Source of the DNA: Paraescarpia echinospica
Lineage: Eukaryota > Annelida > Polychaeta > Sabellida > Siboglinidae
DNA: 64,000 nt
Direction of reading: 5' to 3'
NCBI GenBank assembly: GCA_020002185.1
Contig: CM034531.1
Coordinates: 88,810,288 to 88,874,287, forward strand
Under the pieces are notes generated by a model. It did no database searches. It was not told where the DNA came from and was given only the letters and a program-made list of their open reading frames with translations. Position numbers and translations under genes: made by a program. This document shows, in pieces, positions 4,302-63,520 of this stretch (positions are counted from its first letter, which is position 1; each line of letters starts with the position of its first letter).

Positions 4302-7300
4302 GTGAGTTTTACTCCATCTCACATTTTGTACACATTCAACTAACAACATCTTAGTTCCACTCTGGGTTTCCTTATCATATATATTTAACAAGCTGCCATG
4401 TCTTGTATAGGCTGGTCACTTTTATAAAACTAGTCTGCTGCATAAAAGCAAGTTACATATAACTGATCAGCAGACCAATTGTGTAACAACCTTAACAGTT
4501 GATTTTTGTCCATCTAACATCTGGTACTAATTTTATACTGTTACAAAATCTGTAATCAAGGGGAAATTCAGAAAAAAATTAAGGCATCAGATTTTGTGTG
4601 CGGGCCTTTGTTCATATTCGACCAATCAGCTTGCAGTGTTTTGGTCAGACCATTGTTCATATTCGATCAATCAGCTTGCAGTGTTTTGGTCAGACCATTG
4701 TTCATATTCGACCAATCAGCTTGCAGTGTTTTGGTCAGACCATTGTTCATATTCGATCAATCAGCTTACAGTGTTTTGGTCAGACCATTGTCCATATTCA
4801 ATCAATCAGCTTGAAGTGTTTTGGCCAGACTGTTGTTCATATTCGACCAATCAGCTTGCAGTGTTTTGGCCAGACCGTTGTTCATATTCGACCAATCAGC
4901 TTGCAGTGTTTTGGCCAGACTGTTGTTCATATTCGACCAATCAGCTTACAGTGTTTTGGCCAGACCTTTGATCATATTCAACCAATCAGCTTGTAGTATT
5001 TTGGCCAGACCGATGTTCATATTCCACCAATCAGCTTGCAGTGTTTGGCCAGACCGTTGTTCATATTCGACCAGTCCGGTTGCCGTGTTTTGGCCAGACC
5101 ATTGTTCATATTCAACCAATCAGCTTGCAGTGTTTTGGCCAGACCATTGTTCATATTCAACCAATCAGCTTACAGTGTTTTTGTCAGACCGTTGTTCCTA
5201 TTGTTCCTATTCGACCAATCAGATTACAGTGGTGTGATTTGTGCAGGCCTTTGTTCATAGTAGACTAATCAGCTCGCAGCGTTTTGGTCAGACCATTGTT
5301 TGTTGTATTCGACCAATCAGCTGTCAGTGTTGTGTTTTGTGCAGGCCTTTGAGGAGGACGATGGCAAGGAGTATGTGTACAAGGAGCCAAAGATCACGGG
5401 TCTGACAGAGATCTGTGAGAGACTGAAGGACTTGTACACGGCCAAGTTTGGCAAGGGACATGTACAGCTGATCATGGACAGCACTCAGGTGGGTGTGTCC
5501 AGCAACTGGAGCAGTGGACATTTGCGGGCAGTGGACACTTGCAGTCAACTTACAGGGCACACTTTGGGAGCAGTTTAATAGCTTTCTGTCAAAACAAAAT
5601 ATTACTACACCCTCCATATAGTTAAAACTAAATATTATTGAACCCTCCCTTGTGTCAATTCATATATGACTATATCATGTTTATCTTTTATGACTGTTGA
5701 CCTTTAATCAAAATCCAAAAAGTATAAATATAGATTGTGTCTTCACAGATTCAAGTTGGAAATGAGTCATAATGTTGTTTGTTTACACATGGGAATAAAT
5801 GCTTCAAATATGTTCTTGTCACATTTAAATGTTCACGTGATATGTTTGTGATATGACATAATTTTCTTCCTTATTTAATAATAATAAGTAAATTTATAAA
5901 ACTCCAAAATCCAGACAAGAGTCTATTCAGAAGTGCTGACACGTTATTAAATTACATTAGTACTAAAATTGATTAGTTAAATTAATTATAATAACTTAAT
6001 TTAAATAAATTATAATTACTTGTTTAATTTAAATAAATGATAATAATTTTTTATCTCTTGTCACATCACCATCCTACCACAGGTGAAAGTGGATGATCTT
6101 GACCAGAAGTTCGCCTACATCCAGGTGACGCATGTCACGCCGTACTTCGACAAGGCAGAGCTGGAACAACGCAAGACAGAGTTTGAGCGGAACAACAACT
6201 TGAAGCAGTTTATGTACGAGACACCGTTCACTCGCAATGGTCGCGCTCACGGACAGATCAACGAACAGCACAAACGACGAGTAGTTCTAACCAGTACGTG
6301 GCATTCAGTCAATGCATTGTCTTGTCATGAACAGTTCTCTCAGCCTTTATTTCTGTAGGTAGTGAAGATGCTGCGCAGTGTCAGGTAGTGTATTCCTTGA
6401 GATCTTGCTAGATGTGCGTTTCTCAAATTCGGAGGGTCTGTTGTTAGATACAAATCTTGGTGTAATCATTTGTTAAGCTTAATACTGTATGCTCAATAGA
6501 ACACATGTGGTATGTATGCATAGTTATATATATATATGTGTATATATATATATATATAGGACAGTATATCATGTTGGATAATATTTTAGTTGATTCAGGT
6601 TAGTTGTTCCATAAACATAACATTCTCACAGAAAGGGAAGGAAAGTTTTATTATCTTTTTCATATCGAGCTTAATTAAAAATAAGTCTGATTCATTTTGA
6701 AGCCCAGATTCTTCCTCCCTTACCCTACACCAAGAAGCGCCCCCTGGTGCTGTTTGTGAGAGTGACAGTTGCGTGTTGTAGCGGACCACTCGTTCCCTTA
6801 CATAAAGAAGCGCCTCCTGGTGTACTACCGCCGCCAGGAGGAGCTGACGCCCATCGAGGTCGCCATCGACGTGATGACAAGTAAAGTGAGTGAGCTCCAT
6901 GAAGTCGTCTCTCAGTCACATACCGACGTCAAGAAACTGCAGCTGAAACTACAGGGCAGCATCAGTGTACAGGTAGGTGACACGGCACCTTGTAGTGACA
7001 CGCAGCACCATGTCAGTGACACGTGTGTATGCAGGCCTTGTCATGTTAGTGACATGTGTCAGCAGTTAGTGTGATGTCATTGATATGTGTCTGCAGGCAT
7101 TGTCATGTTAGTGACATGTGTCAGCAGGTAGTGTGATGTCAGTGACGTGCATAAAATGGTAATGTCATGTCAGTGACACACATATCAGAGGCTCATGTCA
7201 GAGACTCATATCAGTCGTTTATATTTCTGATACCATTTTAGTCGATCTTGGCTATCAGTCATGTATCTCTAATGCCTTGCAGTCAGTCGTAACAGTCAGT

Positions 7301-10300
7301 CACATACATATGATGCCTTGCAGTCAATCTTAGTAATCAATCCTGTATCTCTGATGCCTTGCAGTCAACCTTAGTAATCAATCCTGTATCTCTGATGCCT
7401 TGCAGTCAACCTTAGTAATCAATCCTGTATCTCCGATGCCTTGCAGTCAACCTTAGTAATCAATCCTGTATATCTGATGCCTTGCAGTCAACATTAGTAA
7501 TCAATCCTGTATTTATGATGCCTTGCAGTCAACCTTAGTAATCAATCCTGTATATCTGATGCCTTGCAGTCAAATTTTGTCATCAATCCTGTATCTCTGA
7601 TGCCGTGCAGTCAGTCTTAGTAATCAATCCTGTATCTCTGATGCCTTGCAGTCAATCTTAGTAATCAATCCTGTATCTCTGATGCCTTGCAGTCAACCTT
7701 AGTAATCAATCCTGTATATCTGATGCCTTGCAGTCAACATTAGTAATCAATCCTGTATCTCTGATGCCTTGCAGTCAATCTTTGTAATCAATCCTGTATC
7801 TCTGATGCCTTGCAGTCTATCTTAGTAATCAATCCTGTATCTCTGATGACTTACAGTCAATCTTAGTAATCAGTCCTGTATCTCTGATGCCTTGCAGTCA
7901 ATGTTAGTAATCAATCCTGTATCTCTGATGCCTTGCAGTCAACCTTAGTAACCAATCCTGTATCTCTGATGCCTTGCAGTCAACCTTAGTAATCAATCCT
8001 GTATATCTGATGCCTTGCAGTCAACCTTAGTAACCAATCCTGTATCTCTGATGCCTTGCAGTCAACATTAGTAATCAATCCTGTATATCTGATGCCTTGC
8101 AGTCAACAGTCAACATCAATCCTGTATATCAAGTCAACTTAGTAATCAATCTCTGTATGCCTTGCAGTCAATCTTTGTAATCAATCCTGTATCTCTGATG
8201 CCTTGCAGTCAATCTTTGTAATCAATCCTGTATCTCTGATGCCTTGCAGTCAATCTTTGTAATCAATCCTGTATCTCTGATGCCTTGCAGTCAATCTTTG
8301 TAATCAATCCTGTATCTCTGTGCCTTGCAGTCAATCCAATCCTGTATCTCTGATGCCTTGCAGTCAATCTTTGTAATCAATCCTGTATCTCTGATGCCTT
8401 GCAGTCAATCTTTGTAATCAATCCTGTATCTCTGATGCCTTGCAGTCAATCTTTGTAATCAATCCTGTATCGCTGATGCCTTGCAGTCAACCTTAGTAAC
8501 CAATCCTGTATCTCTGATGCCTTGCAGTCAACATTAGTAATCAATCCTGTATTTCTGATGCCTTGCAGTCAACCTTAGTAATCAATCCTGTATATCTGAT
8601 GCCTTGCAGTCAACATTAGTAATCAATCCTGTATCAATCCTCTGATGCCTTGCAGTCAACCTTAGTAATCAATCCTGTATCTCTGATGCCTTGCAGTCAA
8701 TCTTAGTAATCAATCCTGTATCTCCGATGCCTTGCAGTCAACCTTAGTAATCAATCCTGTATATCTGATGCCTTGCAGTCAATCTTTGTAATCAATCCTG
8801 TATCTCTGATGCCTTGCAGTCAACCTTAGTAATCAATCCTGTATATCTGATGCCTTGCAGTCAACATTAGTAATCAATCCTGTATCTCTGATGCCTTGCA
8901 GTCAACCTTAGTAATCAATCCTGTATCTCCGATGCCTTGCAGTCAACCTTAGTAATCAATCCTGTATCTCTGATGCCTTGCAGTCAATCTTTGTAATCAA
9001 TCCTGTATCTCTGATGCCTTGCAGTCAACCTTAGTAATCAATCCTGTATATCTGATGCCTTGCAGTCAACATTAGTAATCAATCCTGTATCTCTGATGCC
9101 TTGCAGTCAACCTTAGTAATCAATCCTGTATCTCCGATGCCTTGCAGTCAACCTTAGTAATCAATCCTGTATATCTGATGCCTTGCAGTCAACATTAGTA
9201 ATCAATCCTGTATATCTGATGCCTTGCAGTCAACATTAGTAATCAATCCTGTATCTCCGATGCCTTGCAGTCAACCTTAGTAATCAATCCTGTATATCTG
9301 ATGCCTTGCAGTCAACATTAGTAATCAATCCTGTATATCTGATGCCTTGCAGTCAACATTAGTAATCAATCCTGTATATCTGATGCCTTGCAGTCAACAT
9401 TAGTAATCAATCCTGTAACTCTGATGCCTTGCAGTCAATCTTTGTAATCAATCCTGTATCTCTGATGCCTTGCAGTCAATCTTAGTAACCAATCCTGTAT
9501 TTCCGATGCCTTGCAGTCAACCTTAGTAATCAATCCTGTATCTCTGATGCCTTGCAGTCAATTTTAGTAATCAATCCTGTATATCTGATGCCTTGCAATC
9601 AATTTTAGTAATCAATCCTGTATCTCTGATGCCTTGCAGTCAAGTTTAGTAATCAATCCTGTATCTCTGATGCCTTGCAGTCAATCTTAGTAATCAATCC
9701 TGTATCTCTGATGCCTTGCAGTCAATTTTAGTAATCAATCCTGTATATCTGATGCCTTGCAGTCAATTTTAGTAATCAATCCTGTATATCTGATGCCTTG
9801 CAGTCAATTTTAGTAATCAGTCCTGTATCTCTGATGCCTTGCAGTCAATTTTAGTAATCAGTCCTGTATATCTGATGCCTTGCAGTCAATCTTAGTAATC
9901 AATCCTGTATCTCTGATGACTTGCAGTCAATTTTAGTAATCAATCCTGTATCTCTGATGCCTTGCAGTCAATTTTAGTAATCAATCCTGTATCTCTGATG
10001 CCTTGCAGTCAATTTTAGTAATCAGTCCTGTATCTCTGATGCCTTGCAGTCAATTTTAGTAATCAATCATGTATCTCTGATGCCTTGCAGTCAATTTTAG
10101 TAATCAGTCCTGTATCTCTGATGCCTTGCAGTCAATTTTAGTAATCAATCCTGTATCTCTGATGCCTTGCAGTCAATTTTAGTAATCAGTCCTGTATCTC
10201 TGATGCCTTGCAGTCAATTTTAGTAATCAGTCCTGTATCTCTGATGCCTTGCAGTCAATTTTAGTAATCAGTCCTGTATCTCTGATGCCTTGCAGTCAAT

Positions 10301-13300
10301 TTTAGTAATCAATCCTGTATATCTGATGCCTTGCAGCTGCTCCGTGCAGTCAGTCACCGTGTGTTGTGTCCTCAGGTGAATGCTGGGCCTGTGGCATATG
10401 CAGACGTCTTCCTGGATGACGAGAACATTAAGAAGTATCCACGGGACAAAGTCAATGCACTCAAAGACATCTTCCGGTAAGTTCCCTTCACACTGCAACA
10501 TGTGTCACTGAATTGTTGAAGGTTCAGTATTATTTTTTCTTCCAGCGCATTTATGCAGAAGGGAAAAAAATGTGTGATCAGTAACAACATTTCACCAAAT
10601 TGTGGGAAAGCAAAAATACATTGGAAGGAGTCAAAGTATTGATTTTCATTTATTTGCATTTTTAGGGACAACAAACAATTTACTGCCGGTTTGAATAATG
10701 CAATTTATAGATATTATCTTGAAGAAATGTTTTTGTTGCATTAGGTGGGTGCATTGAACCACCAATACCAAGAAAACAAGTTGACATACACGGATGACTC
10801 TAGTGTCATTGTAAAACTGAAACGTTGCCTTTCAACATGATACTTATGACTCCATACCACCAAAATGTACCTTAACCCATTAGACTCCAATCCTGCTGAC
10901 CTACCACCTGGACACCTGCTTACCTTCCACCTGGATCCGTCCTTTTGCTTTGATAATGCATGGAGGTGGCTTCATGGATACTTCCATAACTTGTGTCACT
11001 GGGTTCCTTAGTGTATCTGCTGTGTGCTAGGGGTATTTGTCATATGACTTTGTATTGGAAGGTTTTGAATGAGCTCTGTTTGAAAATATCAGCTAACAGA
11101 GTTTGTAGATATACGTAGAACTCTATGCAAGCACACCCAGATCGGTATCACGTTTTGTACATTTAATTTAAAAGTTGATTTGTTTATTTAGCACCATCTT
11201 GTGTGGAATACAAGTATCTTGAAGAAAAGCACAACTGTACAAAGTACAAGGAAGTTAAATGCAAAAAACTACGTGCACCCATTCTTGTTCATTTTTTGTG
11301 CGTCCTGCGGGGTCTCTGAGCATTGGGTCCTGCGGGGTCTCTGAGCGTTGGGTCCTGCGTGGTCTCTGAGCGTTGGGTCCTGCGGGGTCTCTGAGCGTTG
11401 CATCCTTCGTGGTCTCTGAGCGTTGGGTCCTGCGGGGTCTCTGAGCATTGGGTCCTGCGTGGTCTCTGAGCGTTGGGTCCTGCGGGGTCTCTGAGCATTG
11501 GGTCCTGCGTGGTCTCTGAGCATTGGGTCCTGCGTGGTCTCTGAGCGTTGGGTCCTGCGGGGTCTCTGAGCGTTGGGTCCTGCGGGGTCTCTGAGCATTG
11601 GGTCCTGCGTGGTCTCTGAGCGTTGGGTCCTGCGTGGTCTCTGAGCATTGGGTCCTGCGGGGTCTCTGAGCGTTGGGTCCTGCGGGGTCTCTGAGCGTTG
11701 CATCCTGCGGGGTCTCTGAGCGTTGCATCCTGCGGGGTCTCTGAGCATTGCATCCTGCGGGGTCTCTGAGTGTTGCATCCTGCGGGGTCTCTGAGCATTG
11801 CATCCTGCGGGGTCTCTGAGCGTTGGGTCCTGCGTGGTCTCTGAGCGTTGGGTCCTGCGGGGTCTCTGAGCATTGCATCCTGCGGGGTCTCTGAGCGTTA
11901 GGTCCTGCGGGGTCTCTGAGCGTTGCATCCTGCGGGGTCTCTGAGCATTGCATCCTGCGGGGTCTCTGAGCGTTGCGTCATGCGGGGTCTCTGAGCGTTG
12001 CTTCCTGCGGGGTCTCTGAGCTTGTGTCCTGCGGGGTCTCTGAGCGTTGCGTCCAGCGGGATCTCTGAGGTGGTTCATAAAATGATGTGGGAATCACTGA
12101 ATCACTGGGCTACAGTGTGGGGAACCACTACAAGGGCTAAGGTGTGAACCACTACAACTAAAGGGCTCTAAGGTAGGGTGAACCACTACAGGTGTGAACC
12201 ACTACAACGGTCTAAAGGGCTAAGGTGTGAACCACCACAACATGTGGGGTCTAAAGGGCTAAGGTGTGAACCACTACAACATGTGGGGTCTAAAGGGCTA
12301 AGGTGTGAACCACTACAAGTTGTGGGGTCTAAAGGGCTAAGGTGTGAACCACTACAACGTGTGGGGTCTAAAGGGCTAAGGTGTGAACCACTACAATGTG
12401 TGGGGTCTAAAGGGCTAAGGTGTGAACCACTACAATGTGTGGGGTCTAAAGGGCTAAGGTGTGAACCACTACAACGTGTGGGGTCTAAAGGGCTAAGGTG
12501 TGAATCACTGTGTGGGATCTAAAGGGCTAAGGTGTGAACCACTACAACATGTGGGGTCTAAAGGGCTAAGGTGTGAACCACTACAATGTGTGGGATCTAA
12601 AGGGCTAAGGTGTGAACCACTACAACTTGTGGGGTCTAAAGGGCTAAGGTGTGAACCACTACAACATGTGGGGTCTAAAGGGCTATGGTGTGAACCACTA
12701 CAACGTGTGGGGTCTAAAGGGCTAAGGTGTGAACCACCACAACATGTGGGGTCTAAAGGGCTAAGGTGTGAACCACTACAACGTGTCACACATGTTTTAT
12801 TGATGTTTCAGGGACTTTGTTAATGTGTGTTCTACGGCCTTGGACCTCAATGGACGTCTCATCAGCAACGACCAGCTGGAATACCAGGAGTCACTGCACA
12901 TCAACTTCGGTGAGATGACAGAACGACTCGCAGAGATATTTGGAGAGCCGGTGAGTGTTATGTTAGTGACACAACTCTAATTAACCACTACTGTGGGGTC
13001 TAAAGGGCTAAGGTGTGAACTGTGGGGTCTAAAGGGCTAAGGTGTGAACCTTTTAGTCAAACCTGGACCTCAATGGACGTCTCATCAGCAACGACCAGCT
13101 GGAATACCAGGAGTCACTGCACATCAACTTCGGTGAGATGACAGAACGACTCGCAGAGATATTTGGAGAGCCGGTGAGTGTTATGTTAGTGACACAACTC
13201 AATTATCTATATCTGATACCTTTTAGTCAAACCTGGCAGTCAATTACCTATATCTGATGCCTGTTAGTCAATCTTTGCATTTAGTCACCTGTCACTGATG

Positions 13301-13787: not shown

Positions 13788-14084
13788 TGAGACTCGTTGG
13801 ATGCGAAGGTGGCTGCTAGACCACCCACAACAGGAAGTGTTAGTTGAGCTACTGACCACAAGAGACAAGTGGTCATCTAATTGACTCTAGATGCATGTCT
13901 ACTAGTTGGGATGGAGGCGGTCTGACAATGAAGGTCAACAACCTATTTGTTTTATCTCGTTTGTAAGTGAATATTTTGCATTTTCTTTAGGTCTGTCATA
14001 TATAATACAATTTATTGTTTGTTTTCAGCTGTTTTTATTTATATTTATTTGGGTTACAGTGCAGGAGGGTATCTGTAGAATTGA

Positions 14085-14265
14085 ACATTTTGTCAGAGGG
14101 AGAAACTTGGTTGTTGTGAGGGCCGACACATTATATGTACATATTATGGTAGGGAGAACCTTGGTTGTTGTGAAGGATGGACTGACTCATTACGTGATCA
14201 TATTATTAAAGGGGAGAACCTTGGTTGTTATGAAGGGTGGGCTGACTCCTATGATCATATGGCGG
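14085..14265. repeat. About 60-bp tandem repeat, continued at 14565-14645
   Basis: Three imperfect copies of a unit with GGGAGAACCTTGGTTGTTG, then GGTGGGCTGACTC and ATGATCATAT. Another copy and a half lies at 14565-14645, so the array seems interrupted by the inverted DOCK segment. Confidence 0.7.
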
Positions 14266-15744: not shown

Positions 15745-15812
15745 AGCAGCAAGCCCGGGTTCTCTCAATTGAGAATTTGATGCTCTAGCCACTGTGCCAC
15801 TGCGCTCCACAT
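15745..15812 (-). mobile_element. tRNA-derived SINE head fragment
   Basis: On the minus strand this reads GGAGCGCAGTGGCACAGTGG, then CTAGAGCATCAAATTCTC and GAGAACCCGGG. The A-box-like TGGCACAGTGG fits RNA polymerase III internal promoters, but the B box is truncated. It matches the + strand element at 33636 and so belongs to the same SINE family. Confidence 0.6.
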
Positions 15813-17100: not shown

Positions 17101-17163
17101 CTATTGTTGCTGCGACACTGCCTTTGGTAGTCTTGCCTTCAGCAATGCCCATGCTTTCTCCAC
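17101..17163 (-). CDS. COASY: COASY exon 9 (20 codons plus stop)
   Basis: Acceptor GTTGTCCACAG on the minus strand, then [20 protein letters not shown] and TAG. This continues the TQKQ end of exon 8 and matches the conserved QxQVEKAW tail helix of animal COASY. It was found by requiring that tail, since no long frame covers it. Confidence 0.85.
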   Translation of the reverse strand: MEKAWALLKARLPKAVSQQQ

Positions 17164-26879: not shown

Positions 26880-26880
26880 C

Positions 26881-36254: not shown

Positions 36255-36259
36255 ATTCG

Positions 36260-42894: not shown

Positions 42895-43077
42895 ATGGCA
42901 CTGCAGCAGTTTCTGAATTATCTCGAGGAGTGGCAAGATGACGATGATGAAGATGACGATGATGACCTGTATGCTGATTGTTTCTCTTCGCAGCCCCCCC
43001 TTGTGCAGGCGTGTTTCCATGGCGACCCGGACGAAGTGCGCAGTCTGCTCTACAAGAAAGAAGACATCAACTTTCAG
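42895..43077 (+). CDS. Ankyrin gene exon 1 (61 codons)
   Basis: ATG in ACAATGG context, then [14 protein letters not shown], ten or so acidic residues, and [20 protein letters not shown] leading to KKEDINFQ. Donor CAG|GTAAGG, phase 0. The start is chosen because it precedes the conserved region in the same frame. Confidence 0.88.
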
Positions 43078-52000: not shown

Positions 52001-55000
52001 ACAAGTGTAGCATGTATGTAATGTACCACAAGTGTAACATGTATGTAATGTACCACAAGTGTAACATGCATGTAATGTACCACAAGTGTAGCATGTATGT
52101 AATGTACCACAATTGTAACATGTATGTAATGTACTACAAGTGTAACATGTATGTAATGTACCACAAGTGTAACACGTATGTAATGTACCACAAGTGTAAC
52201 ACGTATGTAATGTACCACAAGTGTAACACGTATGTAATGTACACAGAGTTAGATGTTGAAGTCCATTTAAACAAACAAACCAGTTATTCAGATCCTTTAC
52301 AGAAATGTGATAAATACAAACTACTGTTACCATATCAGATGCAGACTATATACCAAGTCAGCACTGCCTAGGGTACACAAAGGATACATCAGTAATAATT
52401 GTTTTTCTTACTATAGAAGCGTCATTATGGTTACAAACTAAAAACAAAAATGTAGCTGTAATAAGATGTTTCCCCAGCGACGTGTCAGTAGGCGTCTCTA
52501 ACTGCTCCATACCTCTGCTCCAGACTCCTGTAATAAGATGTTTCAATAAGCAGTGTGTCTGTAGGTGTCTCCAACTGCTCCATGTAATAAGATGTTTCCT
52601 CAGCGATGTGTCAGTAGGCGTCTCTAACTGCTCCATATCTCTGCTCCAGACTCCTGTAATAAGATGTTTCAATAAGCAGTTTGTCTGTAGGTGTCTCCAA
52701 CTGCTCCGTGTCTCCTCCAGACTCCTGTAATAAGATGTTTCAATGAGCAGTGTGTCTGCAGGTATCTCTAACTGCTCCATGTCTCCTCCAGACTCCTGTA
52801 ATAAGATGTTTCAATGAGCAGTGTGTCTGCAAGTGTCTCTAACTGCTCTATGTCTCCTCCAGACTCCTGTAATAAGATGTTTCATGGAGCAGTGTGTCTG
52901 TAGGTGTCTCTAACTGCTCCATGACTCCTCCAGACTCCTGTAATAAGATGTTTCAATGAGCAGTGTGTCTGTAGGTGTCTCCAACTGCTCCATATCTCTG
53001 CTCCAGACTCCTGTAATAAGATGTGTCATGGAGCAGTGTGTCTGTAGGTGTCTCTAACTGCTCCATGACTCCTCCAGACTCCTGTAATAAGATGTGTCAT
53101 GGAGCAGTGTGTCTGTAGGTGTCTCTAACTGCACCATGACTCCTCCAGACTCCTGTAATAAGATGTTTCATGGAGCAGTGTGTCTGTAGGTGTCTCTAAC
53201 TGCTCCATGTCTCCTCCAGACTCCTGTAATAAGATGTTTCAATGAGCAGTGTGTCTGCAGGTGTCTCTAACTGCTCCATGTCTCCTCCAGACTCCTGTAA
53301 TAAGATGTTTCAATGAGCAGTGTGTCTGTTGGTGTCTCTAACTGCTCTATGTCTCCTCCAGACTCCTGTAATAAGATGATTCATGGAGCAATGTGTCTGT
53401 ATGTGTCTCTAACTGCTCCGTGACTCCTCCAGACTCCTGTAATAAGATGTTTCAATGAGCAGTGTGTCTGCAGGTGTCTCCAACTGCTCCATATATCTGC
53501 TCCAGACTCCTGTAATAAGATGTGTCATGGAGCAGTGTGTCTGTAGGTGTCTCTAACTGCTCCATGACTCCTCCAGACTCCTGTAATAAGATGTGTCATG
53601 GAGCAGTGTGTCTGTAGGTGTCTCTAACTGTACCATGACTCCTCCAGACTCCTGTAATAAGATGTTTCATGGAGCAGTGTGTCTGTAGGTGTCTCTAACT
53701 GCTCCATGTCTCCTCCAGACTCCTGTAATAAGATGTTTCAATGAGCAGTGTGTCTGCAGGTGTCTCTAACTGCTCCATGTCTCCTCCAGACTCCTGTAAT
53801 AAGATGTTTCAATGAGCAGTGTGTCTGTTGGTGTCTCTAACTGCTCCATGACTCCTCCAGACTCCTGTAATAAGATGTTTCATGGAGCAGTGTGTCTGTA
53901 GGTGTCTCTAACTGCTCCATGACTCCTCCAGACTCCTGTAATAAGATGTTTCAATGAGCAGTGTGTCTGTAGGTGTCTCCAACTGCTCCATATCTCTGCT
54001 CCAGACTCCTGTAATAAGATGTTTCATGGAGCAGTGTGTCTGTAGGTGTCTCTAACTGCTCCATGTCTCCTCCAGACTCCTGTAATAAGTTGTTTCAATG
54101 AGCAGTGTGTCTGTAGGTGTCTCTAACTGCTCCATGTCTCCTCCAGACTCCTGTAATAAGATGTTTCATGGAGCAGTGTGTCTGCAAGTGTCTCTAACTG
54201 CTCTATGTCTCCTCCAGATTCCTGTAATAAGATGTTTCATGGAGCAGTGTGTCTGTAGGTGTCTCTAACTGCTCCATGACTCCTCAAGACTCCTGTAATA
54301 AGATGTTTCAATGAGCAGTGTGTCTGTAGGTGTCTCCAACTGCTCCATATCTCTGCTCCAGACTTCTGTAATAAGATGTTTCATGGAGCAGTGTGTCTGT
54401 AGGTGTCTCTAACTGCTCCATGTCTCCTCCAGACTCCTGTAATAATATGTTTCAATGAGCAGTGTGTCTGCAGGTGTCTCTAACTGCTCCATGACTCCTC
54501 CAGACTCCTGTAATAAGACGTTTCATGGAGCAGTGTGTCTGTAGGTGTCTTAACTGCTCCATGACTCCTCCAGACTCCTGTAATAAGACGTTTCATGGAG
54601 CAGTGTGTCTGTAGGTGTCTTAACTGCTCCATGACTCCTCCAGACTCCTGTAATAAGATGTTTCATGGAACAGTGTGTCTGCAGGTGTCTCTAACTGCTC
54701 CATGACTCCTCCAGACTCCTGTAATAAGATGTTTCTATGAGCAGTGTGTCTGTAGGTGTCTCTAACTGCTCCAGACTCCTGAAATAAGATGTTTCAATGA
54801 GCAGTGTGTCTGTAGGTGTCTCTAACTGCTCCATGTCTCCTCCAGACTCCTGTAATAATATGTTTCAATGAGCAGTGTGTCTGCAGGTGTCTCTAACTGC
54901 TCCAGACTCCTGTAGTAAGATGATTCATGGAGCAGTGTGTCTGTATGTGTCTTTAACTGCTCCATGACTCCTCCAGACTCCTGTAATAAGATGTTTCAAC

Positions 55001-58000
55001 GAGCAGTGTGTCTGCAGGTGTCTCCAACTGCTCCATATATCTGCTCCAGACTCCTGTAATAAGATGTTTCATGGAGCAGTGTGTCTAGGTGTCTCTAACT
55101 GGTCCATGTCTCCTCCAGACTCCTGTAATAAGATGTTTCAATGAGCAGTGTGTCTGTAGGTGTCTCTAACTGCTCCAGACTACTGTAATAAGATGTTTCA
55201 ATGAGCAGTGTGTCTGTAAGTGTCTCTAACTGCTCCATGTCTCATCCAGACTCCTGTAGTAAGATGTTTCATGGAGCAGTGTGTCTGTAGGTGTCTCTAA
55301 CTGCACCATGTCTCCTCCAGACTCATGTAGTAAGATGTTTCATGGAGCAGTGTGTCTGTAGGTGTCTCTAACTGCACCATGTCTCCTCCAGACTCCTGTA
55401 ATAAGATGTTTCATGGAGCAGTGTGTCTGTAGGTGTCTCTAACTGCTCCATGACTCCTCCAGACTCCTGTAATAAGATGTTTCAATGAGCAGTGTGTCTG
55501 TAGGTGTCTCTAACTGCACCATGACTCCTCCAGACTCCTGTAATAAGATGTTTCATGGAGCAGTGTGTCTGTATGTGTCTTTAACTGCTCCATGACTCCC
55601 CCAGACTCCTGTAATAAGATGTTTCAATGAGCAGTGTGTCTGCAGGTGTCTCCAACTGCTCCATATATCTGCTCCAGACTCCTGTAATAAGATGTTTCAT
55701 GGAGCAGTGTGTCTAGGTGTCTCTAACTGCTCCATGTCTCCTCCAGACTCCTGTAATAAGATGTTTCAATGAGCAGTGTGTCTGTAGGTGTCTCTAACTG
55801 CTCCAGACTACTGTAATAAGATGTTTCAATGAGCAGTGTGTCTGTAAGTGTCTCTAACTGCTCCATGTCTCATCCAGACTCCTGTAGTAAGATGTTTCAT
55901 GGAGCAGTGTGTCTGTAGGTGTCTCTAACTGCACCATGTCTCCTCCAGACTCCTGTAGTAAGATGTTTCATGGGGCAGTGTGTCTGTAGGTGTCTCTAAC
56001 TGCACCATGTCTCCTCCAGACTCCTGTAATAAGATGTTTCATGGAGCAGTGTGTCTGTTGGTGTCTCTAACTGCTCCATGACTCCTCCAGACTCCTGTAA
56101 TAAGATGTTTCATGGAGCAGTGTGTCTGTAGGTGTCTCTAACTGCACCATGACACCTCCAGTCTCCTGTAATAAGATGTGTCATGGAGCAGTGTGTCTAG
56201 GTGTCTCTAACTGCTCCATGTCTCCTCCAGACTCCTGTAATAAGATGTTTCAATGAGCAGTGTGTCTGTAGGTGTCTCTAACTGCTCCAGACTACTGTAA
56301 TAAGATGTTCAATGAGCAGTGTGTCTGTAAGTGTCTCTAACTGCACCCATGTCTCATCCAGACTCCTGTAGTAAGATGTTTCATGGAGCAGTGTGTCTGT
56401 AGGTGTCTCTAACTGCACCATGTCTCCTCCAGACTCCTGTTGTAAGAGATGTTTCATGGAGCAGTGTGTCTGTAGGTGTCTCTAACTGCACCCATGTCTC
56501 CTCCAGACTCCTGTAATAAGATGTTTCCATGGAGCAGGTGTCTGTTATGTTCCTAACTGCTCCACACTCTCTCCAGACTCCTGTAATAAGATGTTTCAGA
56601 GCAGTGTGTCTGTAGGTGTTCTAACTGCTCCATGACTCTCTCCAGACTCCTGTGTATAAGATGTTTCAATGAGCAGTGTGTCTGTAGGTGTCTCTAACTG
56701 CTCCAGACTACTGTAATAAGATGTTTCAATGAGCAGTGTGTCTGTAAGTGTCTCGAACTGCTCCATGACTCCTCCAGACTCCTGTAATAAGATGATTCAT
56801 GGAGCAATGTGTCTGTATGTGTCTCTAACTGCTCCGTGACTCCTCCAGACTCCTGTAATAAGATGTTTCAATGAGCAGTGTGTCTGCAGGTGTCTCTAAC
56901 TGCTCCAGACTCCTGTAATAAGATGATTCATGGAGCAGTGTGTCTGTATGTGTCTTTAACTGCTCCATGACTCCTCCAGACTCCTGTAATAAGATGTTTC
57001 AATGAGCAGTGTGTCATGGAGCAGTGTGTCTGTAGGTGTCTCTAACTGCACCATGACTCCTCCAGACTCCTGTAATAAGATGTTTCATGGAGCAGTGTGT
57101 CTGTAGGTGTCTCTAACTGCTCCGTTTCTCCTCCAGACTCCTGTAATAAGATGTTTCAATGAGCAGTGTGTCTGCAGGTGTCTCTAACTGCTCCATGTCT
57201 CCTCCAGACTCCTGTAATAAGATGTTTCAATGAGCAGTGTGTCTGTTGGTGTCTCTAACTGCTCTATGTCTCCTCCAGATTCCTGTAATAAGATGTTTCA
57301 TGGAGCAGTGTGTCTGTAGGTGTCTCTAACTGCTCCATGACTCCTCCAGACTCCTGTAATAAGATGTTTCAATGAGCAGTGTGTCTGTAGGTGTCTCCAA
57401 CTGCTCCATATCTCTGCTCCAGACTCCTGTAATAAGATGTTTCATGGAGCAGTGTGTCTGTAGGTGTCTCTAACTGCTCCATGTCTCCTCCAGACTCCTG
57501 TAATAAGTTGTTTCAATGAGCAGTGTGTCTGTAGGTGTCTCTAACTGCTCCATGTCTCCTCCAGACTCCTGTAATAAGATGTTTCATGGAGCAGTGTGTC
57601 TGCAAGTGTCTCTAACTGCTCTATGTCTCCTCCAGATTCCTGTAATAAGATGTTTCATGGAGCAGTGTGTCTGTAGGTGTCTCTAACTGCTCCATGACTC
57701 CTCCAGACTCCTGTAATAAGATGTTTCAATGAGCAGTGTGTCTGTAGGTGTCTCCAACTGCTCCATATCTCTGCTCCAGACTTCTGTAATAAGATGTTTC
57801 ATGGAGCAGTGTGTCTGTAGGTGTCTCTAACTGCTCCATGTCTCCTCCAGACTCCTGTAATAATATGTTTCAATGAACAGTGTGTCTGCAGGTGTCTCTA
57901 ACTGCTCCATGACTCCTCCAGACTCCTGTAATAAGACGTTTCATGGAGCAGTGTGTCTGTATGTGTCTTAACTGCTCCATGACTCCTCCAGACTCCTGTA

Positions 58001-61000
58001 ATAAGATGTTTCATGGAACAGTGTGTCTGTATGGTGTCTCTAACTGCTCCATGACTCCTCCAGACTCCTGTAATAAGATGTTTCTATGAGCAGTGTGTCT
58101 GTAGGTGTCTCTAACTGCTCCAGACTCCTGAAATGAGATGTTTCAATGAGCAGTGTGTCTGTAGGTGTCTCTAACTGCTCCATGTCTCCTCCAGACTCCT
58201 GTAATAATATGTTTCAATGAGCAGTGTGTCTGCAGGTGTCTCTAACTGCTCCAGACTCCTGTAGTAAGATGATTCATGGAGCAGTGTGTCTGTATGTGTC
58301 TTTAACTGCTCCATGACTCCTCCAGACTCCTGTAATAAGATGTTTCAATGAGCAGTGTGTCTGCAGGTGTCTCCAACTGCTCCATATATCTGCTCCAGAC
58401 TCCTGTAATAAGATGTTTCATGGAGCAGTGTGTCTAGGTGTCTCTAACTGCTCCATGTCTCCTCCAGACTCCTGTAATAAGATGTTTCAATGAGCAGTGT
58501 GTCTGTAGGTGTCTCTAACTGCTCCAGACTACTGTAATAAGATGTTTCAATGAGCAGTGTGTCTGTAAGTGTCTCTAACTGCTCCATGTCTCATCCAGAC
58601 TCCTGTAGTAAGATGTTTCATGGAGCAGTGTGTCTGTAGGTGTCTCTAACTGCACCATGTCTCCTCCAGACTCCTGTAGTAAGATGTTTCATGGAGCAGT
58701 GTGTCTGTTGGTGTCTCTAACTGCTCCATGACTCCTCCAGACTCCTGTAATAAGATGTTTCATGGAGCAGTGTGTCTGTAGGTGTCTCTAACTGCACCAT
58801 GACTCCTCCAGACTCCTGTAATAAGATGTGTCATGGAGCAGTGTGTCTAGGTGTCTCTAACTGCTCCATGTCTCCTCCAGACTCCTGTAATAAGATGTTT
58901 CAATGAGCAGTGTGTCTGTAGGTGTCTCTAACTGCTCCAGACTACTGTAATAACATGTTTCAATGAGCAGTGTGTCTGTAAGTGTCTCTAACTGCTCCAT
59001 GTCTCATCCAGACTCCTGTAGTAAGATGTTTCATGGAGCAGTGTGTCTGTAGGTGTCTCTAACTGCACCATGTCTCCTCCAGACTCCTGTTGTAAGATGT
59101 TTCATGGGGCAGTGTGTCTGTAGGTGTCTCTAACTGCACCATGTCTCCTCCAGACTCCTGTAATAAGATGTTTCATGGAGCAGTGTGTCTGTTGGTGTCT
59201 CTAACTGCTCCATGACTCCTCCAGACTCCTGTAATAAGATGTTTCATGGAGCAGTGTGTCTGTAGGTGTCTCTAACTGCTCCATGACTCCTCCAGACTCC
59301 TGTAATAAGATGTTTCAATGAGCAGTGTGTCTGTAGGTGTCTCTAACTGCTCCAGACTACTGTAATAAGATGTTTCAATGAGCAGTGTGTCTGTAAGTGT
59401 CTCGAACTGCTCCATGACTCCTCCAGACTCCTGTAATAAGATGATTCATGGAGCAATGTGTCTGTATGTGTCTCTAACTGCTCCGTGACTCCTCCAGACT
59501 CCTGTAATAAGATGTTTCAATGAGCAGTGTGTCTGCAGGTGTCTCCAACTGCTCCATATATCTGCTCCAGACTCCTGTAATAAGATGTTTCATGGAGCAG
59601 TGTGTCTGTAGGTGTATCTAACTGCTCCATGTCTCCTCCAGACTCCTGTAATAAGATGTTTCAACGAGCAGTGTGTCTGTATGGAGCAGTGTGTCTGTAG
59701 GTGTCTCTAACTGCTTCATGTCTCATCCAGACTCCTGTAGTAAGATGTTTCATGGAGCAGTGTGTCTGTAGGTGTCTCTAACTGCACCATGTCTCCTCCA
59801 GACTCCTGTAGTAAGATGTTTCATGGAGCAGTGTGTCTGTAGGTTTCTCTAACTGCACCATGTCTCCTCCAGACTCCTGTAATAAGATGTTTCATGGAGC
59901 AGTGTGTCTGTTGGTGTCTCTAACTGCTCCATGACTCCTCCAGACTCCTGTAATAAGATGTTTCATGGAGCAGTGTGTCTGTAGGTGTCTCTAACTGCTC
60001 CATGACTCCTCCAGACTCCTGTAATAAGATGTTTCAATGAGCAGTGTGTCTGTAGGTGTCTCTAACTGCACCATGACTCCTCCAGACTCCTGTAATAAGA
60101 TGTTTCATGGAGCAGTGTGTCTGTATGTGTCTTTAACTGCTCCATGACTCCTCCAGACTCCTGTAATAAGATGTTTCAATGAGCAGTGTGTCTGCAGGTG
60201 TCTCCAACTGCTCCATATATCTGCTCCAGACTCCTGTAATAAGATGTTTCATGGAGCAGTGTGTCTAGGTGTCTCTAACTGCTCCATGTCTCCTCCAGAC
60301 TCCTGTAATAAGATGTTTCAATGAGCAGTGTGTCTGTAGGTGTCTCTAACTGCTCCAGACTACTGTAATAAGATGTTTCAATGAGCAGTGTGTCTGTAAG
60401 TGCCTCTAACTGCTCCATGTCTCATCCAGACTCCTGTAGTAAGATGTTTCATGGAGCAGTGTGTCTGTAGGTGTCTCTAACTGCACCATGTCTCCTCCAG
60501 ACTCCTGTAGTAAGATGTTTCATGGAGCAGTGTGTCTGTAGGTGTCTCTAACTGCACCATGTCTCCTCCAGACTCCTGTAATAAGATGTTTCATGGAGCA
60601 GTGTGTCTGTTGGTGTCTCTAACTGCTCCATGACTCCTCCAGACTCCTGTAATAAGATGTTTCATGGAGCAGTGTGTCTGTAGGTGTCTCTAACTGCACC
60701 ATGACTCCTCCAGACTCCTGTAATAAGATGTGTCATGGAGCAGTGTGTCTAGGTGTCTCTAACTGCTCCATGTCTCCTCCAGACTCCTGTAATAAGATGT
60801 TTCAATGAGCAGTGTGTCTGTAGGTGTCTCTAACTGCTCCAGACTACTGTAATAAGATGTTTCAATGAGCAGTGTGTCTGTAAGTGTCTCTAACTGCTCC
60901 ATGTCTCATCCAGACTCCTGTAGTAAGATGTTTCATGGAGCAGTGTGTCTGTAGGTGTCTCTAACTGCACCATGTCTCCTCCAGACTCCTGTAGTAAGAT

Positions 61001-63520
61001 GTTTCATGGAGCAGTGTGTCTGTAGGTGTCTCTAACTGCACCATGTCTCCTCCAGACTCCTGTAATAAGATGTTTCATGGAGCAGTGTGTCTGTTGGTGT
61101 CTCTAACTGCTCCATGACTCCTCCAGACTCCTGTAATAAGATGTTTCATGGAGCAGTGTGTCTGTAGGTGTCTCTAACTGCTCCATGACTCCTCCAGACT
61201 CCTGTAATAAGATGTTTCAATGAGCAGTGTGTCTGTAGGTGTCTCTAACTGCTCCAGACTACTGTAATAAGATGTTTCAATGAGCAGTGTGTCTGTAAGT
61301 GTCTCGAACTGCTCCATGACTCCTCCAGACTCCTGTAATAAGATGATTCATGGAGCAATGTGTCTGTATGTGTCTCTAACTGCTCCGTGACTCCTCCATA
61401 CTCCTGTAATAAGATGTTTCAATGAGCAGTGTGTCTGCAGGTGTCTCCAACTGCTCCATATATCTGCTCCAGACTCCTGTAATAAGATGTTTCATGGAGC
61501 AGTGTGTCTGTAGGTGTATCTAACTGCTCCATGTCTCCTCCAGACTCCTGTAATAAGATGTTTCAACGAGCAGTGTGTCTGTATGGAGCAGTGTGTCTGT
61601 AGGTGTCTCTAACTGCTCCATGTCTCCTCCAGACTCCTGTAATAAGATGTTTCAGTGAGCAGTGTGTCTGTAGGTGTCTCTAACTGCTCCATGACTCCTC
61701 CAGACTCCTGTAATAAGATGTTTCATGGAGCAGTGTGTCTGTAGGTGTCTCTAACTGCTCCATGTCTCCTCCAGACTCCTGTAATAAGATGTTTCAATGA
61801 GCAGTGTGTCTGTAGGTGTCTCTAACTGCTCCAGACTACTGTAATAAGATGTTTCAATGAGCAGTGTGTCTGTAAGTGTCTCGAACTGCTCCATGACTCC
61901 TCCAGACTCCTGTAATAAGATGATTCATGGAGCAATGTGTCTGTATGTGTCTCTAACTGCTCCGTGACTCCTCCAGACTCCTGTAATAAGATGTTTCAAT
62001 GAGCAGTGTGTCTGCAGGTGTCTCCAACTGCTCCATATATCTGCTCCAGACTCCTGTAATAAGATGTTTCATGGAGCAGTGTGTCTGTAGGTGTATCTAA
62101 CTGCTCCATGTCTCCTCCAGACTCCTGTAATAAGATGTTCCAACGAGCAGTGTGTCTGTATGGAGCAGTGTGTCTGTAGGTGTCTCTAACTGCTCCATGT
62201 CTCCTCCAGACTCCTGGAATAAGATGTTTCAGTGAGCAGTGTGTCTGTAGGTGTCTCTAACTGCTCCATGACTCCTCCAGACTCCTGTAATAAGATGTTT
62301 CATGGAGCAGTGTGTCTGTAGGTGTCTCTAACTGCTCCATGTCTCCTCCAGACTTCTGTAATAAGATGTTTGATGGAGCAGTGTGTCTGTAGGTGTCTCT
62401 AAATGCTCCATGTCTCCTCCAGACTCCTGTAATAAGATGTGTCATGGAGCAGTGTGTCTGTAGGTGTCTCTAACTGCTGCATGACTCCTCCAGACTCCTG
62501 TAATAAGATGTTTCAATGAGCAGTGTGTCTGTAGGTGTCTCTAACTGCTCCATGTCTCCTCCAGACTCCTGTAATAAAATGTTTCATGGCGCAGTGTGTC
62601 TGTAGATGTCTCTAATTGCTCCATGTCTCCTCCAGACTCCTGTAATAAGATGTTTCATGGAGCAGTGTGTCTGTAGATGTCTCCAACTGCTTCATTGGGA
62701 TGATTAGCAATTATGTGTTATCCGCCCTCGGATCCTAGCAATGGCCCTTGGCGGGCTATACTCAACAACAGCAAGAAGACGCTTCTATTGCATTCAAATG
62801 AGGGAAACAGTCCACTCCACTATTTTTTCAGCTACACATCTTTGGCCTGTCACCTGAAGATCTTGTGTGTTATTGTCAGGCTTTAAATGTGGCATTATCC
62901 ATCAAAATACCGCAGCAATCGTTAGGGTCCCATGGTAGACAATACATAGCATTCGGTTGTGTATAGCCAAGATGGAGGATCACCATGACTACCGCACACC
63001 AAATAAGGGCAGTGACATACGACTAATGGTCCCAATGTCTCTGCTCCAGACTCCACTCCACTACGCTGCGGCCTCCACACACGGAGCAATGTGCCTGGAG
63101 CTTCTCGTCAATGAAGGAGCAAACTGCCACGTTCAGGTAACAGCAATAGTTTTATAATAATGAAGTTATTACCTTCATAGAATGGCTGATATACACTAGA
63201 AGCTTTAGAGGGTGGATGCTGGTGTCATTGAATAATCCTAAGTATGTAATTACAATCAATTTAATACAAGTTATAAAGTCACTGCAAGCTATTTTGTTAT
63301 TGGTTATTCTAGGTTTTTTAGTTTTCCACACAAGGTAGTGATATTCATTCCTTGAAGATAATAATTCTCTAAAAGCAATTATTGCAAGTCACTGCTCAGT
63401 AAGGGTGAATGTTCTGACATCTGCGGCTGTGTTGTTTGCAGGGACATGACGGCAAGACAGCCCTACACATGACGGCCTTCCACGGACGTTTCTCTCGTGC
63501 CCAGACTCTAATACAGCACG
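42895..63520 (+). CDS. PP6 regulatory ankyrin-repeat subunit (ANKRD28/44/52-like), first seven coding exons, continues right
   Basis: Exons 42895-43077, 45351-45500, 46310-46510, 47008-47160, 51496-51699, 63050-63136 and 63442-63520 join in frame to 352 codons plus one base. The product is about ten ankyrin repeats that align end to end with ANKRD28/44/52, scaffold subunits of protein phosphatase 6. Family landmarks: [104 protein letters not shown] and [14 protein letters not shown]. Vertebrate orthologues are about 1000 residues, so roughly two thirds of the protein lies beyond the window. The N-terminus is unusual: an acidic run of D/E before the first repeat. Introns are large and array-filled; the sixth exon is preceded by an 11.3-kb intron. 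Confidence 0.92.
43078..44189 (+). other. Ankyrin gene intron 1, unique part
   Basis: AT-rich intron. A 22-bp direct duplication of TTTTCACATAATCCTATGGG is at 43869-43911. No gene is seen. Confidence 0.5.
44190..45125. repeat. 23-bp TG-rich minisatellite, ankyrin intron 1
   Basis: About 35 copies of a 23-bp unit, GTGTATGTGTGTTATCC followed by TGGCCT, with AAGTTGGCAT-type variants. Open frames of C, V, L, S, W and P across it come from stop-free repetition. Confidence 0.88.
45351..45500 (+). CDS. Ankyrin gene exon 2 (50 codons)
   Basis: Acceptor TCTTTCTGGCCAG; donor GAT|GTGAGT. It encodes [31 protein letters not shown] and [14 protein letters not shown], two ankyrin repeats. Confidence 0.88.
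45505..46065. repeat. 20-bp minisatellite, ankyrin intron 2
   Basis: About 27 copies of CTAACACCTGACATCACAGT and variants, beginning 5 to 20 bp after the exon 2 donor. The nearby intron start (CACGTCACAGTCTAACACC) is the first unit. I do not see exon bases in the unit. Confidence 0.88.
46310..46510 (+). CDS. Ankyrin gene exon 3 (67 codons)
   Basis: Acceptor CATCTTTTGCAG; donor GAG|GTGAGT. It encodes [40 protein letters not shown] and [25 protein letters not shown] is nearly invariant in ANKRD28/44/52. Confidence 0.9.
47008..47160 (+). CDS. Ankyrin gene exon 4 (51 codons)
   Basis: Acceptor TATGTGACAG, pyrimidine-poor; donor CAG|GTGAGG. It encodes [40 protein letters not shown]. The [11 protein letters not shown] motif identifies the family. 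Confidence 0.9.
47161..48212 (+). other. Ankyrin gene intron 4, 5' unique part
   Basis: No gene or recognised mobile element. AT-rich unique sequence. Confidence 0.5.
48213..48991. repeat. 59-bp minisatellite, highly homogeneous
   Basis: About 13 copies of a 59-bp unit (TCTGCCAAAATATAATTGTC, then TATGATAGTATGGCTACTTT, then CTACCTAAATGTAATGTTA). Copies differ at only two or three positions (TTTG/TTTC, ATAATTG/ATAAGTG), unlike the other arrays here, which suggests recent amplification. Confidence 0.95.
48992..50139 (+). other. Ankyrin gene intron 4, middle unique part
   Basis: No gene is seen. A perfect 14-bp inverted repeat, CTATTGCAATACTA at 49753-49766 with its mirror at 49795-49808, can form a hairpin with a 28-nt loop. 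Confidence 0.5.
50140..50880. repeat. 25-bp minisatellite, ankyrin intron 4
   Basis: About 29 copies of AACCCTTGAAGTATAACCAT plus CTCAG, increasingly degenerate to the right. It directly precedes the 31-bp array. Confidence 0.9.
50900..51495. repeat. 31-bp minisatellite repeating the ankyrin exon 5 acceptor junction
   Basis: About 19 copies of CCTTGACCTTGTCCCTACAG followed by ATGTACACACC. The authentic exon 5 boundary is CCTTGTCCTACAG|ATGTACACACCCCTGC, so each unit carries the real acceptor and the first 14 exon bases. The array ends exactly at, and flows into, the functional exon. Confidence 0.93.
51496..51699 (+). CDS. Ankyrin gene exon 5 (68 codons)
   Basis: Acceptor GTCCTACAG; donor CCAG|GTAAGA. 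It encodes [40 protein letters not shown] and [16 protein letters not shown]. The functional acceptor is the last of a row of about 19 near-identical ones. Confidence 0.9.
51705..52245. repeat. 27-bp minisatellite, ankyrin intron 5 (5' end)
   Basis: About 19 copies of a 27-bp unit, CCACAAGTGTAACATGTATG followed by TAATGTA, beginning just after the exon 5 donor. Open frames on both strands are artefacts. Confidence 0.92.
52246..52465 (+). other. Unique spacer in ankyrin intron 5
   Basis: About 220 bp of unique sequence separating two arrays. Nothing else is seen. Confidence 0.5.
52466..62697. repeat. 10.2-kb, 71-bp minisatellite resembling the ankyrin exon 6 acceptor junction
   Basis: About 140 copies of a 71-bp unit. 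Ordered blocks: AACTGCTCCATGTCTCCTCC, AGACTCCTGTAATAAGATG, TTTCAATGAGCAGTGTGTC, TGTAGGTGTCTC. Many units read ATCTCTGCTCCAGACTCC, matching the real exon 6 boundary TGTCTCTGCTCCAG|ACTCC at 63036-63054. Units with TCATGGAGCAGT can pair with ACTGCTCCATGA in a perfect 12-bp stem. Multi-unit blocks recur at higher order (marker TCCATATATCTGCTCCAG near 53490, 55030, 55660, 58380, 59545, 60210, 61455 and 62030). It ends 352 bp before exon 6. Confidence 0.95.
62698..63049 (+). other. Unique sequence before ankyrin exon 6
   Basis: About 350 bp of unique intron between the 71-bp array and the exon 6 acceptor. No other feature is seen. Confidence 0.5.
63050..63136 (+). CDS. Ankyrin gene exon 6 (29 codons)
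   Basis: Acceptor TGTCTCTGCTCCAG; donor CAG|GTAACA. It encodes [20 protein letters not shown] and NEGANCHVQ, a signature repeat of ANKRD28/44/52. Confidence 0.9.
63137..63441 (+). other. Ankyrin gene intron 6
   Basis: About 300 bp without arrays or other features. Confidence 0.55.
63442..63520 (+). CDS. Ankyrin gene exon 7 (26 codons plus 1 base)
   Basis: Acceptor GTTGTTTGCAG; donor CACG|GTGGGT, phase 1. It encodes [20 protein letters not shown] and QTLIQH. The next exon is not visible before 64000. Confidence 0.88.

What the first reader, a model, noticed from the sequence alone, without database searches (positions are those of the whole stretch)
4596..62697. Minisatellites built from the host gene's own splice junctions, in three neighbouring genes
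Six arrays have a unit that includes an authentic splice site plus adjacent exon bases: DOCK intron A-B (3' site), COASY introns 5 (5' site), 6 (3' site) and 8 (5' site), and ankyrin introns 4 and 5 (3' site). Donor and acceptor cases occur, copy numbers range from 4 to about 140, and both strands are affected, so the process appears general. Introns thus carry rows of decoy splice sites. I recall exon-boundary minisatellites ('mirages') at amphioxus Adh, unverified. The extent here suggests a genome-wide mechanism of junction duplication.
Basis: partly seen in the sequence, partly recalled or inferred. Interest (0 to 1): 0.88.

Follow-up and report, generated by a model that had tools for sequence, protein, structure and literature searches.

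The report
Splice-junction minisatellites in a tubeworm
In a genome that is likely that of a deep-sea tubeworm, several introns hold rows of short repeats that match the gene's own intron-exon border and are likely copies of it, so the real splice site sits beside a few to about a hundred look-alikes; such 'mirages' were known from amphioxus, and here they also occur in unrelated genes of the same genome.

Summary
Three genes (DOCK family, COASY, ankyrin-repeat) were modelled with 20 GT-AG introns and open frames. In six chaperonin genes elsewhere in the genome 5 of 108 junctions pass, against 0 of 5724; I accept four, in four genes. The kind is known as amphioxus 'mirages', but the host is likely a siboglinid annelid: COASY is 80% identical to Lamellibrachia satsuma, and other listed hits reach at most 52%. 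Most likely, short tandem duplications arise throughout introns, and those crossing an exon edge are tolerated because the exon-proximal splice site would stay in use. A junction-targeted process is only weakly supported: 11 of 32 arrays against 4.2 expected (P 0.0005), but P 0.03 to 0.09 without weak cases, and paired strong donors show no genome-wide excess. RNA evidence is lacking.

The parts
4188..13787 (+). 3' part of a DOCK-family gene, exons 4188-4301, 5345-5488, 6083-6293, 6782-6972, 10376-10476, 12812-12950, 13686-13787 (stop)
   Evidence: open spliced frame, all introns GT-AG; DHR-2 lobes B and C
4608..5331 (+). 45-bp array, 15.7 copies, DOCK intron A-B; carries the acceptor plus 7 exon bases (GCCTTTG); authentic acceptor at 5344/5345
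   Evidence: best copy scores 19 over 21 bases across the junction; 10 copies aligned, all with AG
13065..13200 (+). copy of the end of DOCK exon 6 plus its donor and first intron bases (source about 12842-12977), offset 223 bp
17101..26879 (-). COASY (bifunctional CoA synthase), 9 coding exons, 541 aa
   Evidence: CoaE and cytidylyltransferase domains; homologues
17683..18391 (-). 28-bp array in COASY intron 8, about 26 copies; unit carries 18 exon bases plus the donor; authentic junction is the last unit (exon ends at 18374)
   Evidence: 30 matches at a loose cut, 23 with GT, 26 and 19 at a stricter one; contains a 191-bp block repeated at 100% identity
21865..22000 (-). array of about 36-43 bp in COASY intron 6, 4 copies; acceptor plus about 16 exon bases (exon starts at 21849)
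   Evidence: 4 copies, 3 with AG
22428..22593 (-). 33-bp array in COASY intron 5, about 5 copies; donor plus about 15 exon bases (exon ends at 22565)
   Evidence: 3 further copies aligned, 2 with GT
42895..63520 (+). 5' part of an ankyrin-repeat gene resembling ANKRD28/44/52, exons 42895-43077, 45351-45500, 46310-46510, 47008-47160, 51496-51699, 63050-63136, 63442-63520; continues beyond the window
46511..46640 (+). donor side of ankyrin intron 3: short 24-bp array (3 copies) starting at the donor and, at intron +94, a copy with 18 exon bases
50901..51509 (+). 30-bp array in ankyrin intron 4, about 20 copies; acceptor plus 14 exon bases; authentic acceptor at 51495/51496 lies in the last unit
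   Evidence: 19 copies, 13 with AG
52457..62695 (+). 71-bp array in ankyrin intron 5, about 144 copies; acceptor plus 5 exon bases; authentic acceptor at 63049/63050, about 350 bp away
   Evidence: 115 spanning matches, best score 17; 142 matches, 106 with AG; a looser cut gives 180 matches, some units twice, 178 with AG

Best explanation
These arrays are tandem minisatellites whose unit includes a copy of the stretch straddling the host gene's own exon-intron border, likely founded by short tandem duplications (about 20-75 bp) that arise all through the introns of this genome. When a duplicated stretch crosses an exon edge, the copy next to the exon would keep working as the splice site, while the outer copies become intron; the change is then predicted to be tolerated, unlike duplications inside exons. 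Unequal exchange or slippage then likely lengthens and homogenises the row, and the exon-derived bases drift like the rest. Shown here: that the units contain junction sequence, the exon-to-intron direction for COASY cases, drift of exon-derived bases about as fast as, or somewhat faster than, intron-derived ones, and recurrence in unrelated genes. Inferred: the founding event, the tolerance argument and use of the exon-proximal site.
For: Junction copies in the host intron 8 of 40, foreign 0 of 760; chaperonin sample 5 of 108 at >=18, foreign 0 of 5724, four accepted on inspection. Exon is the source: the exon residues inside the COASY 5 and 8 units are well conserved in five other animals (EVTQKQ aligns with DVTQKQ and EVTQKQ), those of COASY 6 moderately. 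Drift: mean exon-part/intron-part identity of copies is 0.87/0.91 (COASY 8), 0.92/0.91 (ankyrin 4), 0.77/0.81 (COASY 5), 0.77/0.92 (COASY 6), 0.75/0.87 (DOCK A-B), 0.81/0.89 (ankyrin 3); GT or AG is lost in 7 of 30 and 6 of 19 copies of COASY 8 and ankyrin 4. Turnover: a 191-bp block in the COASY 8 array is repeated at 100%. Arrays fill introns generally: of 20 arrays that I listed by hand, 18 lie in complete introns, 2 in the stretch before DOCK exon 4188 (taken as intron) and none in 19.3 kb taken as intergenic (one 15-bp row inside a retroelement ORF and two-copy rows were left out).
Against: Junction arrays exceed random placement (11 of 32, 4.2 expected, P 0.0005), which a purely place-blind process would not give; the excess fades to P 0.03 (8 cases) and 0.09 (7 cases) without weak cases. 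No RNA, no orthologous introns and no second haplotype were available. Founding breakpoints could not be read.
Confidence: 0.7

Rival explanations
1. A process aimed at splice junctions makes these duplications, for example breakage or replication trouble linked to transcription, RNA-DNA hybrids or nucleosome edges at exon borders.
For: 7 of 18 window arrays against 2.2 expected, P 0.0023; pooled 11 of 32 against 4.2, P 0.0005. None of the 20 listed arrays lies in DNA taken as intergenic. The 126-bp array of CCT1 intron 8 starts one base inside the donor.
Against: Excess depends on weak cases; chaperonin sample alone 4 against 2.0, P 0.08; paired CAGGTAAGT genome-wide 513 against 527 for the reversed control, and by separate places in the stretch that both listings cover (contig C1 plus C2 to 12.9 Mb) 8 against 5 (counted by eye).
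Confidence: 0.18
2. The matches are chance resemblances: splice consensus plus a few exon bases.
For: Two window cases share only 5 and 7 exon bases and one chaperonin case 7; ankyrin intron 5 scores 17 while foreign junctions reach 16 in that 11-kb intron.
Against: 0 of 760 and 0 of 5724 foreign comparisons reach the host cuts; long exon stretches in others (about 30 in HSPD1, about 38 in CCT3, about 40 in a further ankyrin intron).
Confidence: 0.03
3. The arrays came first and the exon borders moved into them.
For: None found.
Against: The shared exon bases code for residues well (COASY 5, 8) or moderately (COASY 6) conserved in five other animals. The DOCK, ankyrin and chaperonin edges were not put through this alignment.
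Confidence: 0.03
4. The decoy rows are kept by selection, as splicing regulators or as material for new exons and introns.
For: Many ankyrin intron 4 units read open in the frame of the exon ([14 protein letters not shown]), so a nearby decoy could add about 10 residues; intron gain from mirages has been proposed for amphioxus globins.
Against: Copies lose AG or GT and exon-derived bases drift at least about as fast as intron-derived ones; unit lengths 28, 50 and 71 would shift the frame. No decoy reaches the authentic score in DOCK A-B (10), HSPD1 (9), CCT1 intron 6 (16) or COASY 6 (3), and 2 of 19 do in COASY 8; but 6 of 13 do in ankyrin 4, 43 of 106 in ankyrin 5, 3 of 5 in CCT5, 2 of 2 in COASY 5 and the one in DOCK exon 6.
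Confidence: 0.06

Closest known systems
Amphioxus 'mirages' (Adh3; globins BflGb6 and BflGb9; also troponin C and PGBD5)
   Same: tandem repeats spanning an intron-exon boundary, at 5' or 3' boundaries, many but not all copies with AG/GT; units 10-72 bp in Adh3 and 150-160 bp in globins (passages of PMC3087553 and PMC3902484)
   Different: host here is likely a siboglinid annelid; arrays reach about 144 copies; three neighbouring genes affected; sampled in six further genes. Splicing and haplotype instability, described in amphioxus, were not testable here
Intron gain by tandem genomic duplication of AG/GT proto-splice sites
   Same: duplications that copy splice sites within genes (discussed in PMC3087553, passages; a potato case, PMC4974935, seen in the search listing only)
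   Different: no gained intron was seen here; the copies sit inside existing introns
Large minisatellite in intron 1 of earthworm metallothionein genes
   Same: an annelid gene with a 10-19 kb repetitive region in an intron (passages of PMC12783039)
   Different: mean monomer about 180 bp; the passages seen do not describe units that include exon bases

Membership tests
amphioxus-type mirage | tandem repeat unit spans an intron-exon boundary of the host gene | tested here: met
   exon bases 5 to 18 in the window arrays, 7 to about 38 in the accepted chaperonin cases
amphioxus-type mirage | both donor and acceptor boundaries can be affected | tested here: met
   window: 4 donor and 4 acceptor junctions; the four accepted chaperonin cases are all acceptors
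amphioxus-type mirage | unit length in the published range (10-160 bp) | tested here: met
   arrays 24-71 bp in the window; the DOCK exon 6 duplication has a 223-bp offset and lies outside the range
amphioxus-type mirage | many but not all copies keep AG/GT | tested here: met
   23 of 30 in COASY 8 and 13 of 19 in ankyrin 4
amphioxus-type mirage | normal mRNA despite the decoys | not testable with these tools
   no RNA data; only the spliced frames are shown to be open
amphioxus-type mirage | length differences between haplotypes or somatic cells | not testable with these tools
   one assembly only
amphioxus-type mirage | occurrence in cephalochordates (reported range, not a defining trait) | tested here: not met
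   COASY best match Lamellibrachia satsuma, 80%; the other hits listed reach at most 52% (120 of 507 listed)

The most novel reading that the evidence does not exclude
Exon-intron borders are hotspots of germline tandem duplication in this annelid, driven by a process tied to transcription or splicing, which keeps seeding introns with spare splice sites and so supplies raw material for new exons and introns; the same process arose, or persisted, independently of amphioxus.
Probability: 0.15. Interest if true: 0.78.

Novelty: new member of a known kind. Interest (0 to 1): 0.5.

Why it matters
In the papers that my searches reached, exon-boundary minisatellites are described in amphioxus and discussed as possibly general in cephalochordates. 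Finding them in a likely annelid, at a few percent of junctions in genes not chosen for repeats, suggests a general by-product of minisatellite-rich introns. Each array is also a natural experiment on splice-site choice: one real site beside up to about a hundred near-copies, where exon definition (nearest site wins) and scanning predict different outcomes that long-read RNA could separate.

Tried and rejected
Chance matches: rejected for all but possibly ankyrin intron 5. Array-first origin: rejected for the COASY edges. Host = amphioxus: rejected. CCT4 intron 7 passed the score cut but its 21-bp array shows no clear exon bases, so it was dropped. CCT1 intron 8 has a donor-adjacent 126-bp array with no exon bases; not counted. 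The CCT3 intron 1 acceptor was first set 14 bases too far upstream by my script and was moved, where it again scores 36 (foreign maximum 14); one search used the unmoved one. Eight adjacent-hit pairs gave no resolved intron (two in CCT3, six in the downstream ankyrin gene) and were left out. The seven further downstream ankyrin introns that were resolved gave no case: best of 14 junctions 15. Exon-only 16-mers in the chaperonin sample pass at 2 of 108 edges only. Score cuts 17 and 18 were chosen after seeing the scores; at 17 the chaperonin control has 2 of 5724. Ankyrin intron 3 is counted as a junction array although its 18 exon bases lie in a separate copy at intron +94; without it and the three cases with at most 7 exon bases the pooled P is 0.09. 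The acceptor at 4188 and the last donor gave no junction copy (scores 6 and 7). Rfam: 0 matches at the gathering cut. A retroelement protein search gave no named species in its list.

Full report
What is there. The window holds three genes. Spliced by hand, a DOCK-family gene (7 exons, + strand), COASY (9 coding exons, - strand, 541 aa) and an ankyrin-repeat gene resembling ANKRD28/44/52 (7 exons, + strand) give open frames with every one of 20 introns GT-AG. Pfam finds DHR-2 lobes B and C, CoaE with a cytidylyltransferase domain, and ankyrin repeats. The name ANKRD28/44/52 rests on a human sequence recalled from memory. The 20 arrays that I listed take up 27.2 kb of the 64 kb.

The host. COASY matches Lamellibrachia satsuma (a siboglinid tubeworm, Annelida) at 80% over 372 aa, while the other hits listed reach at most 52% (120 of 507 hits are listed). 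The genome is 1.08 Gb; a published table gives Paraescarpia echinospica 1090.9 Mb and three other tubeworms 561-688 Mb (passage of PMC9921365). That makes a siboglinid likely and the species only a guess.

Junction copies in the window. For each junction I took 24 exon and 14 intron bases and looked for the best copy in the rest of the host intron and in the other 19 introns. Eight of 40 junctions score 17 or more in their own intron, 0 of 760 in foreign ones: DOCK A-B acceptor, DOCK exon 6 donor, COASY 5 donor, COASY 6 acceptor, COASY 8 donor, ankyrin 3 donor, ankyrin 4 acceptor, ankyrin 5 acceptor. Exon-only 16-mers agree (6 of 40 against 2 of 760 at 12 or more; permutation mean 0.39, maximum 5 in 20000), and the signal falls off inside the exon. 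In the COASY 8 and ankyrin 4 arrays the authentic junction is itself the last unit.

State of the copies. Mean exon-part/intron-part identity to the authentic junction is 0.87/0.91 in COASY 8, 0.92/0.91 in ankyrin 4, 0.77/0.81 in COASY 5, 0.77/0.92 in COASY 6, 0.75/0.87 in DOCK A-B and 0.81/0.89 in ankyrin 3, so the exon-derived bases show no sign of being kept. GT survives in 23 of 30 COASY 8 copies and AG in 13 of 19 ankyrin 4 copies. With site scores built from 67 other introns, no decoy reaches the authentic site in DOCK A-B (10 decoys), HSPD1 (9), CCT1 intron 6 (16) or COASY 6 (3), and 2 of 19 do in COASY 8; but 6 of 13 do in ankyrin 4, 43 of 106 in ankyrin 5, 3 of 5 in CCT5, 2 of 2 in COASY 5 and 1 of 1 in DOCK exon 6. 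Score against distance to the junction shows no consistent trend (rho -0.37, P 0.04 in COASY 8; 0.23, 0.07 and 0.18, not significant, in ankyrin 4, ankyrin 5 and DOCK A-B).

Direction. At the COASY 5 and 8 edges the shared exon bases code for residues well conserved in a bivalve, an acorn worm, Owenia, a nemertean and a frog, and at COASY 6 moderately, so the exon is the source and the array the derivative there.

Rest of the genome. A Pfam Cpn60_TCP1 search of the whole assembly placed chaperonin exons at nine multi-exon genes, one of them doubled. 54 introns were resolved. Five of 108 junctions score 18 or more in the host intron, 0 of 5724 in foreign introns. On inspection four hold: CCT3 intron 1 (54-bp unit, about 38 exon bases, 7 copies), HSPD1 intron 8 (50-bp unit, about 30 exon bases, 10.5 copies), CCT1 intron 6 (35-bp unit, about 13-15 exon bases, 18 copies, array ending about 230 bp before the acceptor) and CCT5 intron 3 (7 exon bases, about 4 copies). 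The seven downstream ankyrin introns that could be resolved gave none (0 of 14 junctions at 17 or more). In an unresolved downstream ankyrin intron I saw by eye another acceptor array, 70-bp unit, five copies before the authentic acceptor, roughly 40 exon bases; it is in no count. So the window (8 of 40) is rich, but the phenomenon is general.

Is it aimed at junctions? If founding units fell at random over each intron and its edges, 2.2 of 18 window arrays and 2.0 of 14 chaperonin arrays would hold at least 5 exon bases; 7 and 4 do. Pooled P is 0.0005; without the three cases with at most 7 exon bases 0.032, without ankyrin 3 as well 0.091. The model treats each array as one founding event and takes the present non-array length as the founding length; the array list was merged by hand. 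A genome-wide count of two CAGGTAAGT 16-46 bases apart gave 513, the reversed control 527; by separate places over contig C1 and C2 up to 12.9 Mb, 8 against 5, counted by eye from listings that are cut off. That test sees only the strongest donors. I therefore favour place-blind tandem duplication in introns, with at most a mild preference for borders.

Introns versus intergenic DNA. Of my 20 listed arrays (about 3 or more copies, merged by hand) 18 lie in complete introns and 2 in the stretch before the DOCK exon at 4188, taken as intron; none lies in 19.3 kb taken as intergenic, P 2e-8 under placement by non-array length. I left out two-copy rows on both sides and one 15-bp row at 35567-35670 inside a retroelement ORF. 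Untranslated exons and their introns could not be seen. This contrast rests on one window.

What is known. [quoted passage not shown] The Adh paper itself is not held. My searches for mirages or boundary minisatellites in other animals showed none in their listings; they cover open-licence PubMed Central only, and most hits were seen as listings. This is the same kind of thing, likely in a different phylum.

How it would work. A short tandem duplication across a border leaves two splice sites. If the exon-proximal one stays in use, the protein is unchanged and the extra copy is free to drift and to expand; unequal exchange then makes a row. Use of the proximal site is inferred from the open frames and conserved protein, not from RNA. 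In ankyrin intron 4 a decoy 30 bases upstream would add ten residues in frame, so its use cannot be excluded.

Noticed in passing
window 13788-17100 and 26880-42894 versus introns: None of the 20 listed minisatellites sits in these 19.3 kb taken as intergenic, which would fit a transcription-linked origin; one window only, and one short 15-bp row in a retroelement ORF was left out.
   Followed up: partly
window 12209-12786, 12990-13049 and 7254-10336, 13200-13320: Units of the 39-bp array of DOCK intron 5 recur in intron 6 of the same gene, and relatives of the 41-bp unit of intron 4 appear there too (by eye): array units seem to move between introns of one gene.
   Followed up: no
window 14248-14570: Inverted, diverged copy of the DOCK intron 3/exon 4 region (source about 6600-6860) downstream of the gene's stop codon, by eye.
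   Followed up: no
window 6718-6780: Diverged extra copy of the first part of DOCK exon 4 in intron 3, perhaps an old two-copy border duplication (by eye; best exon 18-mer match of that intron scores 15).
   Followed up: no
window 35409-39062: LINE-type retroelement with a GDSL-esterase ORF, endonuclease and reverse transcriptase pieces in several frames; close relatives are numerous in unnamed ENA records.
   Followed up: partly
window 28286-29599: Two inverted copies of an ORF that looks retroelement-related; one weakly matches GIY-YIG below its cut-off, as in Penelope-like elements (recalled).
   Followed up: no
G000:C1:88876250-88876670 (downstream ankyrin intron, L001): Acceptor array with a 70-bp unit, five copies and roughly 40 exon bases; the short stretch AGGTGTGT occurs both in the exon at the end of the match and at the start of the intron part, a hint of homology-assisted duplication.
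   Followed up: partly
G000:C9:12289110-12294972 and 12372211-12377964: CCT6 matches occur twice in the same order 83 kb apart, so the gene may be tandemly duplicated (or an assembly duplicate).
   Followed up: no
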